A stretch of 64,000 nt of DNA from a halophilic archaeon SHRA6 (GTDB lineage Archaea > Halobacteriota > Halobacteria > Halobacteriales > Haloferacaceae), in assembly GCA_005239175.1 (NCBI GenBank), contig SOPS01000001.1, forward strand, positions 806,001-870,000, in the 5' to 3' direction. Positions 13,463 to 16,746 of this stretch are shown one piece after another. The notes under the pieces were generated by a model that worked only from the letters and a program-made list of their open reading frames with translations, was not told the origin of the DNA and did no database searches. Both the position numbers and the translations under genes were made by a program. Numbering within the stretch: the first letter of the stretch is position 1; the number at the start of each line of letters is the position of its first letter.

Positions 13463-13467
13463 GTTGG

Positions 13468-13680
13468 CTGCTCTGGTTGTTCTGGCTGGTCTGGCTGCGC
13501 TAGCTGCTCTGGTTCTTCTGGCTGGTCTGGCTGCGCTAGCTGCTCTGGTTGTTCTGGCTGGTCTGGCTGCGCTAGCTGCTCTGGTTGTTCTGGCTGGTCT
13601 GGCTGCGCTAGCTGCTCTGGTTGTTCTGGCTGGTCTGGCTGCGCTAGCTGCTCTGGCTCTTTTGGCTGCGCTGGCCGGCC
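13468..13680. repeat. 36-bp tandem repeat, 5 full copies plus a partial
   Basis: Units start at 13468, 13504, 13540, 13576 and 13612 and are nearly identical (CTGCTCTGGTTGTTCTGG plus CTGGTCTGGCTGCGCTAG). A degenerate sixth copy runs to about 13680. Because 36 is a multiple of 3, both strands stay open: one would encode QPDQPEQPEQLA repeats, the other leucine/alanine/valine repeats. The array begins 6 bp after the methylthiotransferase stop codon. Confidence 0.95.
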
Positions 13681-13737: not shown

Positions 13738-14166
13738 ATGGGTCGCCGTTCACTCGCTGTCGACGTTCTCGGACCGATCGGGGTCGTCGTCCTCCTCGCG
13801 GCTGTGCTCGTACTCGCAGCCGGGATGTGGCCGCCGATGGTCGCCGTCGAGAGCGGAAGCATGGAGCCACACGCCGAGGCGGGTGATCTGATCGTCGTAT
13901 CTACGACCGATCGATTCGCCGGCCCGAACGCCCAAGACGGCATCGTTACCGCCGAAGAGGCGGAGACGAGCGGATACGGACGAATCGGCGGGCAAGGCGA
14001 CGTGATCGTGTTTTCGCCACCCGATCGAGAAGGATCGCCGATCTTCCACCGGGCTGCGTTTTACGTGACAGAGGGCGAAGATTGGACCGACAGGGCCGAT
14101 CACGATCGGGTGGGTGGGACACACTGTGCACTGATCGACAACTGTCCGGCTCCACACTCGGGGTAG
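13738..14166 (+). pseudogene. Type I signal peptidase (Sec11-like), 5' part, cut by an insertion sequence
   Basis: The first 142 codons of an archaeal S26B signal peptidase. It has one N-terminal membrane helix (about 10-32), the catalytic-serine box VESGSMEPH, a hydrophobic beta core (DVIVFSPPDREG) and the histidine box PIFHRAAFYV. Translation ends at a TAG (14164-14166) inside the inserted DNA, right after NCPAPHSG. The missing continuation, with the GDDN-type catalytic aspartate box, lies at 16161-16364 on the far side of the element. The protein normally removes Sec signal peptides at the membrane. This fragment lacks the acidic residue of the Ser-His-Asp set and should be inactive. The start ATG 13738 gives the usual N-terminus. 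Confidence 0.85.
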
Positions 14167-14258
14167 CGTAACTGCTACGAAAAACAGCAGCGAACAGCAG
14201 TCTTTCCATACAACTGAATCCGAATCTTTATGTTTATTCGAGGTTTAAACATGACTAT

Positions 14259-14411
14259 ATGGCTGAGTTCACATTCGAGGGACGGGAAGCCCTCGAAAAA
14301 GAAGCAACCAAGATTGGTCACGGCGCACACGTCCTCGTACCAAAAGCATGGCTTGGTGAGAAAGTCGCCGTCATCCGCCTCGAACAACAAGAAACAGCAA
14401 CCGACGAGTAA
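14259..14411 (+). CDS. DUF2080-family transposase-associated protein
   Basis: A 50-residue protein (MAEFTFEGREALEKEATKIG, then GAHVLVPKAWLGEKVAVIRL) immediately upstream of tnpB. Small DUF2080 proteins with exactly this VLVPK-W-GK-V pattern accompany tnpB in haloarchaeal IS1341-type elements. The fold resembles AbrB/SpoVT swapped-hairpin DNA-binding proteins, so it may regulate or assist the element (inference). The stop is 6 bp before the tnpB start, which implies translational coupling. Confidence 0.85.
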   Translation: MAEFTFEGREALEKEATKIGHGAHVLVPKAWLGEKVAVIRLEQQETATDE

Positions 14412-14417
14412 CACAGT

Positions 14418-16160
14418 ATGGCATCCACTCACCTCTCACTCCCGATTCGCCTCCCGTTCAAGCAGCGAGAGCGCCACAACCGATTAGACACACTCATGGC
14501 TCGCGTGGCCAATACGCTTATTAAGCGATACTGGACGCCCGAACATCTTGAAGGGATTGACGACTACCCATACCAAGCGTGGAAATACTTTGACGAAGCC
14601 GAAGCGTTCGCAAGCGTTGACCTGTACCTTCCAAGTCGGTACAAACGCTGTCTCATGCAGAAAGTCGGGGAAACACTGCGGAGTCACGCTGACAAACGCG
14701 AAGCGTTCCAATCCATCAAACCGATTCTCCCCAATCATAAAATTCGACGCATCGACACCCGACGAATCAAGGAACGACTCTGGGACGCTGACGAGTACAT
14801 CAAATCAGGGTACGTTGACCTGCTCATCGGACAACTCAACTCGTATTACAACTGTCACGGTCGCTTTCCCAAGTCGTATTTCGAGATGCAGGACTGCCCG
14901 ACGTACTCGAAAGGCGTTCTCCCGTACTCCGCAGACGACGGTCCGACGAGTGGGCAGGCTGTCAAATACAGATACGACGAAGACACACAGACACTTACGG
15001 TCAAACTCAAAACCCCTGATTCGGTCGAACCAGATTCTCGGGGGGATTGGACGTGGACAGAACACGAACTGGAAGAATACGAAGCGTTCCACGAACTTCT
15101 CGAACACGGAGACCTCTCCGCCCCCTCGTTCCACCCCACACAAACCAAAACAGGGAACGAATACCACGAACTCTCATTCCCCGTCGAAGTCGAACACGCA
15201 GAGAAAGCAGACGACGTTGAAACCGTCTTGGCGATTGACGGTGGCCTCCGAAAAGACGCGACTGCCGTTGTCGTGAACGAGGACGGAGAGCAACTCTCTG
15301 TGCCGTATTTCATCCAGAACACGGAACGAGAGCGGATGCGGAATCTCGCGCGTGAACGCAACGAACTCAACTCGAAACTCGCATACCTGCGTCGAGAAGG
15401 TCGTGACCACACAGACTCGTTCAAGCGCATCCAAGCAGAGTACGGGCGTGTGAACAACAAGATTCGTCACAAGCGCGAACAACTCGTCCACGACGTAGCC
15501 AATCAAGTTCTTGCACTCGCTTTAGTGTACGATGTGGATGCGATTGTTCACGAAGACTTGCGGAGTCTCAGCCCGCCTCGCGGCGAAGGACAACTCTCAT
15601 GGGAACTCTCGTCGTGGGCGCGTCGTGAAATCATCTCGAAAATCACGTATCGAGCGGACATTGCCGGACTGCACGTCAAGCGGGTGCGTCCGGGCAACAC
15701 GTCTCGAGAATGTCCTCGGTGTGGTGCGACGGGCCACACGACGAAGTCCCCCGACCATTTCCACGAAGTGTGGCACGGCGGGCACTTCCGCTGTGACAAC
15801 ACTCGGTGTGGGTTCGAAGCCGACCGTGACTACGTTGGTGCGGTCAACGTGGCTCGTGTGTTCTTCAGCGAGTCGGCAACGCTAGACCACGATTTCACGT
15901 CTTCCTATACGGGAGACTTTAAAATCGTGCCAGCTAGCCGTTCCGCTGGCTCGCGTCTCGCGTTCGGTGACGCACCTATCGCGTTTACTGAACAGTCGGA
16001 GCAAGATGTGACTGCTGGTGGCGGGTCGTGCTTCATAGCGCCCGCTGTCACCCCGACAGAGACGATAAATGATAGCAGTAAACCCAATACCGTGTCAAGC
16101 CCAGCGACACACAGCACCTCTCGCTTCACGAGAGCGACTGCTGTTTACTGCCGAAAATAG
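14418..16160 (+). CDS. tnpB: TnpB RNA-guided nuclease (IS1341 type)
   Basis: A 580-residue protein with the TnpB/Cas12 layout. The N-terminal wedge/REC-like region covers about 1-260. The RuvC domain has aspartate in VLAIDGGLRKDAT (D274), glutamate in IVHEDLRSL (E379) and the final aspartate in EADRDYVGAVNVAR (around D469-471). The zinc ribbon has CPRCG and CDNTRCGF. TnpB cuts DNA guided by an omega RNA made from the element's right end, which favours retention of the element. The roughly 90 residues after the last RuvC motif run through the presumed omega-RNA region to the IS edge. All catalytic residues are present, so it looks intact. Confidence 0.92.
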   Translation: MASTHLSLPIRLPFKQRERHNRLDTLMARVANTLIKRYWTPEHLEGIDDYPYQAWKYFDEAEAFASVDLYLPSRYKRCLMQKVGETLRSHADKREAFQSIKPILPNHKIRRIDTRRIKERLWDADEYIKSGYVDLLIGQLNSYYNCHGRFPKSYFEMQDCPTYSKGVLPYSADDGPTSGQAVKYRYDEDTQTLTVKLKTPDSVEPDSRGDWTWTEHELEEYEAFHELLEHGDLSAPSFHPTQTKTGNEYHELSFPVEVEHAEKADDVETVLAIDGGLRKDATAVVVNEDGEQLSVPYFIQNTERERMRNLARERNELNSKLAYLRREGRDHTDSFKRIQAEYGRVNNKIRHKREQLVHDVANQVLALALVYDVDAIVHEDLRSLSPPRGEGQLSWELSSWARREIISKITYRADIAGLHVKRVRPGNTSRECPRCGATGHTTKSPDHFHEVWHGGHFRCDNTRCGFEADRDYVGAVNVARVFFSESATLDHDFTSSYTGDFKIVPASRSAGSRLAFGDAPIAFTEQSEQDVTAGGGSCFIAPAVTPTETINDSSKPNTVSSPATHSTSRFTRATAVYCRK

Positions 16161-16180
16161 GAACGGTACATTACCTACGG
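15950..16180 (+). ncRNA. Predicted omega RNA of TnpB (scaffold plus guide)
   Basis: By family knowledge the omega RNA overlaps the 3' end of tnpB, ends at the right IS border and carries the flanking host sequence as its guide. Here the border is at about 16160, so the guide would start GAACGGTACATTACC (16161 onward). The start of the RNA is not visible. The hairpin CTCTCG-CTTCA-CGAGAG near 16120-16136 would be part of the scaffold. Confidence 0.4.
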
Positions 16181-16364
16181 CGACGACAACCCCTACTATG
16201 ATCAGGTCGCCGGGACCGCCCCGCCGGTCAAACCAGAGTGGATCGAGGCCAAAGGACAGTTCCGGGTGCCGAACGCCGGGTGGGTCAGGCTAGCACTCAC
16301 GTGGGCCGATTGGACCGGCCCGATCGCTTATGAGCCTATGGGTGCTACGGTGTACCATGTCTGA
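16161..16364 (+). pseudogene. Type I signal peptidase, 3' part, after the insertion
   Basis: Sixty-seven codons plus a stop, continuing the signal peptidase: ERYITYGDDNPYYDQVAG, then PPVKPEWIEAKGQFRVPNAG and WVRLALTWADWTGP to the TGA at 16362-16364. The GDDN...YDQ box holds the catalytic acidic residue of archaeal signal peptidases, and the rest is the last beta strand and tail. It has no start codon of its own. Its stop codon overlaps the ATG of the DoxX-like gene by 8 bases, so the intact ancestor was probably in one operon with that gene. Confidence 0.85.
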
Positions 16365-16746
16365 CGAGACTGAACACAGCAGTAGCGTATCGACGATCGG
16401 CCGGGTACTCCTTGGACTGGGGTTGGCGTTGCAAGCCTCGGAGGATTTCCGGGATATGGAGGATACGATCGAGTATGCCGACTCCGCCGGCGTCCCGATG
16501 CCCGATCTGCTCGCGCCGATGGCGTCGGGCATGATGCTCGTTGCGGGATTCGGGATCGCTCTGTGGCGGCTCCCGCGGGTCTCGACGGGCGCGGCGGCGG
16601 CGTTTCTCACGGTTGTGACGACGACGATGCACGACTTCTGGAACGCCGACGAGGACAGTGCCTCCGGCGAGCGGCTCGCCTTTTTCGGCAATATGGCGAT
16701 GCTCGGTGGGGTGCTCGTGTTCCTGCGGAAGGCCTACAACGGGTAA
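16357..16746 (+). CDS. DoxX-family membrane protein
   Basis: A 129-residue protein with four hydrophobic helices and the DoxX arrangement: STIGRVLLGLGLALQASEDF at the start, LLAPMASGMMLVAGFGIALW, AAAAFLTVVTTTMHDFW, and LAFFGNMAMLGGVLVFLRKAYN at the end. DoxX proteins are small membrane subunits linked to respiratory or redox functions, often with an unknown partner. ATG 16357 is chosen because it overlaps the signal peptidase stop; this is typical operon spacing and leaves a clean first helix. Confidence 0.8.
   Translation: MSDETEHSSSVSTIGRVLLGLGLALQASEDFRDMEDTIEYADSAGVPMPDLLAPMASGMMLVAGFGIALWRLPRVSTGAAAAFLTVVTTTMHDFWNADEDSASGERLAFFGNMAMLGGVLVFLRKAYNG

What the first reader, a model, noticed from the sequence alone, without database searches (positions are those of the whole stretch)
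13738..16364. Signal peptidase gene split by a TnpB-only insertion sequence
Codons up to NCPAPHSG (ending at about 14163) and from ERYITYGDDN (16161) are two halves of one Sec11-type signal peptidase. The 1,997 bp between are an IS1341-type element. The serine and histidine boxes are in the 5' half and the GDDN acidic box in the 3' half, so neither half can work alone. Signal peptidase is essential, so another copy must exist or this one was specialised. The 3' half still overlaps the DoxX gene start, which shows that the insertion is recent enough to leave the frame clean.
Basis: seen in the sequence. Interest (0 to 1): 0.65.

Follow-up and report, generated by a model that had tools for sequence, protein, structure and literature searches.

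The report
Accessory signal peptidase broken by IS607-type element
In this salt-loving archaeon a 2-kb mobile element carrying an RNA-guided nuclease has jumped into, and almost certainly inactivated, a spare signal-peptidase gene; the main signal-peptidase gene is intact elsewhere, so this is an ordinary gene disruption, with a more precise identity for the element than first proposed.

Summary
The split gene is real. Codons 13738-14163 and 16167-16364 are two parts of one Sec11/S26-type signal peptidase. The same-genus genome G001 (Halalkalirubrum salinum) carries it uninterrupted at the same locus, 93% identical, reading PHSG|YITYGDDN.

GAACGG, which gave the 'ER' of ERYITY, is the conserved right end of the element, so the insert is about 14164-16166 (2,003 bp).

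The insert is not IS1341/IS605. It is a tnpA-less derivative of an IS607-family element. Its ends, tnpB and guide-RNA region are shared with complete elements encoding an IS607 serine transposase, one of them in this genome. All 15 left ends have GGG, 24 of 25 right ends are followed by T, and two empty sites fit a GG crossover without target duplication. It carries DUF2080 and a TnpB with the RuvC residues present, plus a covarying RNA at its 3' end.

Essentiality is no paradox. The gene belongs to an accessory clade. The orc1/DP1-flanked homologue, in the neighbourhood I recall for essential Haloferax Sec11b (HVO_0002), is intact, and four more S26 genes exist. The overlap with DoxX is ancestral, not evidence of age. 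Verdict: well-resolved but ordinary.

The parts
13738..14163 (+). 5' part of the disrupted accessory Sec11-type signal peptidase (142 codons: N-terminal TM, Ser box SGSMEPH, candidate catalytic His in FHRA); runs into TAG at 14164, the first codon of the element
14162..14163 (+). inferred left GG crossover dinucleotide (with a preceding G: GGG, the likely TAM)
   Evidence: 15 left ends all carry GGG; empty sites in G001
14164..16166 (+). IS607-lineage, tnpA-less mobile element (2,003 bp), no target-site duplication
   Evidence: shared ends with complete IS607 elements, empty site
14259..14411 (+). DUF2080 family transposase-associated protein, 50 aa
   Evidence: NF033496 E 2.9e-13, above cut-off; PF09853 E 6.8e-4, just below cut-off
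14418..16160 (+). tnpB, 580 aa, RNA-guided nuclease of the TnpB/Cas12f type; RuvC motifs AIDGG (272), HEDL (378), DRDY (467) and Zn ribbon CPRCG...CDNTRCG present
16007..16167 (+). predicted guide-RNA (omegaRNA/reRNA) scaffold overlapping the 3' end of tnpB; helices at 16007-16151, conserved GAAAATAGGAACGG at its end
   Evidence: 10-sequence alignment: 12 pairs with compensatory changes, 93.6% of cells paired against 87.4% in shuffles
16165..16166 (+). inferred right GG crossover dinucleotide, followed by the fixed right-flank T (16167)
   Evidence: 24 of 25 right ends followed by T
16167..16187 (+). sec11 sequence that would serve as guide (TACATTACCTACGGCGACGAC); the 21-base string 16165-16185 has no other match within 3 mismatches in the genome
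   Evidence: guide role inferred
16167..16364 (+). 3' part of the disrupted signal peptidase gene (YITYGDDN..., stop 16362-16364)
   Evidence: alignment with the uninterrupted locus in G001
16357..16746 (+). DoxX-family membrane protein; start overlaps the sec11 stop by 8 bp, an arrangement shared with the uninterrupted relative
   Evidence: PF07681 E 1.4e-9

Best explanation
An accessory Sec11-type signal peptidase gene (mtaB-sec11-doxX locus) was inactivated by a transposon of the IS607 lineage that kept tnpB and a DUF2080 gene but not the serine transposase. A serine TnpA supplied in trans (one such gene lies at C1:48557 in this genome) most likely recombined the circular element into GGGG|TACATT at a GG dinucleotide, without duplicating the target. 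The gene now ends at a TAG that is the first codon of the element; Ser and His boxes are separated from the GDDN box, so no catalytic peptidase can be made from either part. TnpB with an RNA read from the element's right end into sec11 would cut uninterrupted alleles next to GGG and so help the element stay in a polyploid genome. Viability is explained by the intact orc1-flanked Sec11b-type homologue and other S26 genes. Shown by sequence: gene split, exact boundary, element class, intact homologues. Inferred: mobilisation in trans, nuclease activity, loss of peptidase function.
For: Uninterrupted orthologue at the same locus in G001/H. salinum. Same mtaB-sec11 order in Natronocalculus amylovorans. 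Element relatives with the same ends, some with an IS607 serine transposase. One IS607 TnpA over cut-off in the own genome (223 against 110 bits). Two empty sites fit a GG crossover: this one and, exactly, a second own copy at C2:560568. IS607 GG crossover, fixed right-flank base and GGG TAM are published for ISXfa1 (PMC10711439). Structured 3' RNA. Tree puts the broken gene in an accessory clade. Intact S26-type genes elsewhere in the genome.
Against: The G001 empty site reads GGGATAC, not GGGGTAC, so the exact pre-insertion base is inferred (a silent third-position difference). The genome also carries Y1 transposases of IS200/IS605, so mobilisation by another enzyme is not formally excluded. 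No expression or activity data.
Confidence: 0.93

Rival explanations
1. IS1341-type (IS200/IS605-derived) TnpB-only element, moved by a Y1 HUH transposase.
For: TnpB-only layout; Y1 transposases exist in the genome; TnpB families are shared between IS605 and IS607.
Against: Ends and tnpB are shared (77-83% DNA identity) with elements that carry an IS607 serine transposase; GG crossover with a fixed right-flank base is the IS607 rule, whereas the IS605 right flank is variable. No element with these ends and a Y1 gene was seen among the loci examined.
Confidence: 0.04
2. The halves remain functional: the two polypeptides assemble, or the element is removed from the RNA, as for an IStron.
For: Both halves are open and still show low dN/dS against G001 (0.16 and 0.23).
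Against: The 3' half has no in-frame ATG before its last ten codons; no Rfam intron match in the element; low dN/dS is equally expected for a recent insertion.
Confidence: 0.02
3. The gene was already dispensable or dead before the insertion, for instance because of the 36-bp tandem repeat array in its upstream region.
For: The array (13467-13675) lies between mtaB and sec11 here and is absent from G001, whose intergenic stretch is about 190 bp shorter.
Against: Coding parts show no frameshift or other stop and are under purifying selection; promoter effect unknown.
Confidence: 0.1
4. The break is an assembly or mixed-population artefact.
For: The element has several similar copies in the genome, a known source of misjoins.
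Against: The other own copies are only 79-83% identical to this one, too different to be confused; the junctions match the element's end consensus and the syntenic relative on both sides.
Confidence: 0.02

Closest known systems
IS607 family (serine transposase TnpA + TnpB), e.g. ISXfa1
   Same: GG crossover, no target duplication, GGG at the left flank, fixed right-flank base, TnpB with a structured RNA at the right end (PMC10711439)
   Different: this copy lacks tnpA and has a DUF2080 gene in its place; TnpB is 580 aa
IS1341-type TnpB-only elements of haloarchaea (sotRNA/omegaRNA elements)
   Same: TnpB-only layout with an RNA overlapping the 3' end of tnpB (PMC12558985)
   Different: ends belong to IS607-type elements; no match to the Rfam sotRNA families
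Haloferax volcanii Sec11a/Sec11b (MEROPS S26B)
   Same: Ser/His/Asp-type archaeal signal peptidase I (PMC4343526)
   Different: the broken gene is a short (~207 aa) accessory paralogue; the homologue in the orc1/DP1 neighbourhood that I recall for Sec11b (HVO_0002) is a different, intact gene

Membership tests
IS607 | serine-recombinase TnpA in the element | tested here: not met
   absent from this copy; present in elements with the same ends, so it is filed as a tnpA-less derivative, not as a complete IS607 element
IS607 | insertion at a GG dinucleotide without target duplication | tested here: met
   15/15 left ends GGG, 24/25 right ends GG(or GA)-T; two empty sites
IS607 | ends shared with a complete IS607 element | tested here: met
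   left TNNCGTAACTGCTAC, right CCGAAAATAGGAACGG
IS1341 / IS200-IS605 | Y1 TnpA or ends of Y1-mobilised elements | tested here: not met
   no Y1 gene in the element; no related copy with one was seen
TnpB (OMEGA nuclease) | RuvC D-E-D residues and Zn ribbon | tested here: met
   motifs at 272, 378, 467; CPRCG/CDNTRCG; PF07282 E 2.2e-14; NF040570 84 bits, below its cut-off of 100
TnpB (OMEGA nuclease) | RNA-guided cleavage | not testable with these tools
   structure of the RNA covaries, activity not measured
Sec11 / S26B signal peptidase | Ser, His and Asp boxes with N-terminal TM in one chain | tested here: met
   met by the uninterrupted orthologue and by the two parts taken together; not by either part alone. 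TM assigned by eye

The most novel reading that the evidence does not exclude
In a haloarchaeal IS607 lineage the transposase gene and a small DUF2080 gene are alternative partners of tnpB behind the same ends; the DUF2080 form could be a non-autonomous nuclease element that persists mainly by RNA-guided cutting of empty alleles in polyploid cells, with DUF2080 controlling TnpB or its RNA.
Probability: 0.25. Interest if true: 0.5.

Novelty: new member of a known kind. Interest (0 to 1): 0.25.

Why it matters
It gives a clean natural knock-out of an accessory archaeal signal peptidase with an uninterrupted sister species for comparison, and base-exact junctions that assign a haloarchaeal TnpB-only element to the IS607 lineage, with a predicted GGG TAM and guide that can be tested in a haloarchaeal laboratory strain.

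Tried and rejected
Rfam gave no credible RNA family for the element. A GG core at 16160-61 was considered first and rejected when searches showed that AACGG is common to other copies. TnpB's frame happens to be the frame of the sec11 3' part, so a read-through fusion is conceivable, but nothing supports it. The idea that the insertion hit an essential gene was rejected from the tree and copy count. No paper in the held library joins IS607, tnpB and haloarchaea.

Full report
Setting. The window is C1:806001-870000 of a 3.36-Mb, 5-contig haloarchaeal genome. Its same-genus relative G001 has the matching gene at the same contig coordinates as Halalkalirubrum salinum N1521 (L085), so the two are taken to be the same genome and the window's genus to be Halalkalirubrum.

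The gene is one gene, split. The 5' part (13738-14163) hits Peptidase_S26 (E 1.4e-5) and TIGR02228 (E 5e-9, below its cut-off as expected for a fragment). In G001 the gene is uninterrupted between the same neighbours. The alignment runs to CACTCGGG at the left and resumes at TACAT at the right, reading PHSG-YITYGDDN, 93% identity over the whole protein. About 30 homologues were read and all run on through this point; none ends at PHSG. Catalytic residues are therefore separated by the insert.

Exact boundary. The string GGAACGG ends other copies of the element at unrelated loci and is absent from the empty site. So E and R belong to the element and the 3' half begins at Y (TAC, 16167). Joining 14163 to 16167 restores the frame (207 codons plus stop). 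A second own-genome copy (C2:560568) has an empty counterpart in G001 that reads GGGAGGG|TTACTG, exactly as a GG crossover predicts. In G001 the site of the present insertion reads GGGATAC; the pre-insertion sequence here was presumably GGGGTAC, a silent difference.

The element is of the IS607 lineage. Five places in the own genome match it; two of them (C1:48471-50898) are the parts of one element with the same ends that carries a serine recombinase with an HTH domain, scoring 223 bits against the NCBIfam IS607 transposase model (cut-off 110). Relatives in other haloarchaea, including a Halorubrum plasmid annotated 'IS607 family transposase', have the same layout. All 15 left ends show GGG at the junction, and 24 of 25 right ends are followed by T. 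For IS607 the literature gives GG crossover, a fixed right-flank nucleotide that is part of the RNA scaffold, and a GGG TAM for ISXfa1 (PMC10711439). The genome also has Y1 transposases, but no element with these ends and a Y1 gene was seen.

Cargo. A 50-aa DUF2080 protein and a 580-aa TnpB with RuvC and zinc-ribbon motifs in place. Across the family the slot before tnpB holds either the serine transposase or DUF2080. The last ~160 bp, which overlap the tnpB end, fold with compensatory changes in 12 of 39 pairs; 93.6% of cells pair against 87.4% in shuffles and at most 56% when slid. This supports a guide-RNA scaffold whose guide would be sec11 sequence from 16167 on. The 21-base string GG + TACATTACCTACGGCGACG occurs nowhere else in the genome within 3 mismatches, so no uninterrupted target remains in the assembly. 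Nuclease activity is inferred.

Essentiality. The own genome keeps an intact homologue at C1:1121766, 41% identical, flanked, as judged by eye from the translations, by orc1 and a DP1-like (DNA polymerase D small subunit) gene, plus four TIGR02228 genes above cut-off. In Haloferax volcanii the essential enzyme is Sec11b, listed as HVO_0002 (PMC4343526). That HVO_0002 lies next to orc1 is my own knowledge; the same orc1-sec11-DP1 order is seen in G031. In the tree the broken gene groups with G001 and G008 (100/100) in an accessory set apart from the clade that holds the orc1-flanked copies. Relatives close to the accessory gene were found in Natronocalculus, Halorubrum and Halobellus.

Age. The sec11/doxX overlap is present in G001 too, so it does not date the insertion. 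Both parts show low dN/dS against G001 (0.16 and 0.23), and no further stop or frameshift is seen, so the insertion is recent compared with the species split; counts are small.

Conclusion. An accessory signal peptidase gene inactivated by a tnpA-less IS607-lineage TnpB element: solid, ordinary, with a corrected class and boundary.

Noticed in passing
13467-13675: Array of 5.8 copies of a 36-bp repeat (itself built of 9-bp units) between mtaB and the sec11 start; absent from the same place in G001.
   Followed up: partly
14259-14411; L005 1599; L051 3098; L053 3002; L058 1594: DUF2080 and the IS607 serine transposase occupy the same slot before tnpB in elements with the same ends, as if exchangeable. 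A DUF2080 protein has been reported as an antitoxin in another setting (PMC10440598).
   Followed up: partly
14418-16364: tnpB lies in the same reading frame as the 3' part of sec11, separated only by tnpB's TAG stop and the element's last two codons.
   Followed up: no
G000:C3:368953 (L008): A lone right end of the same element family (31 bp match); whether a tnpB of another type lies upstream was not examined.
   Followed up: no
G000:C2:210708-211053: A Y1 transposase gene broken by stops, in a genome with three other Y1 transposase genes (IS200/IS605).
   Followed up: no
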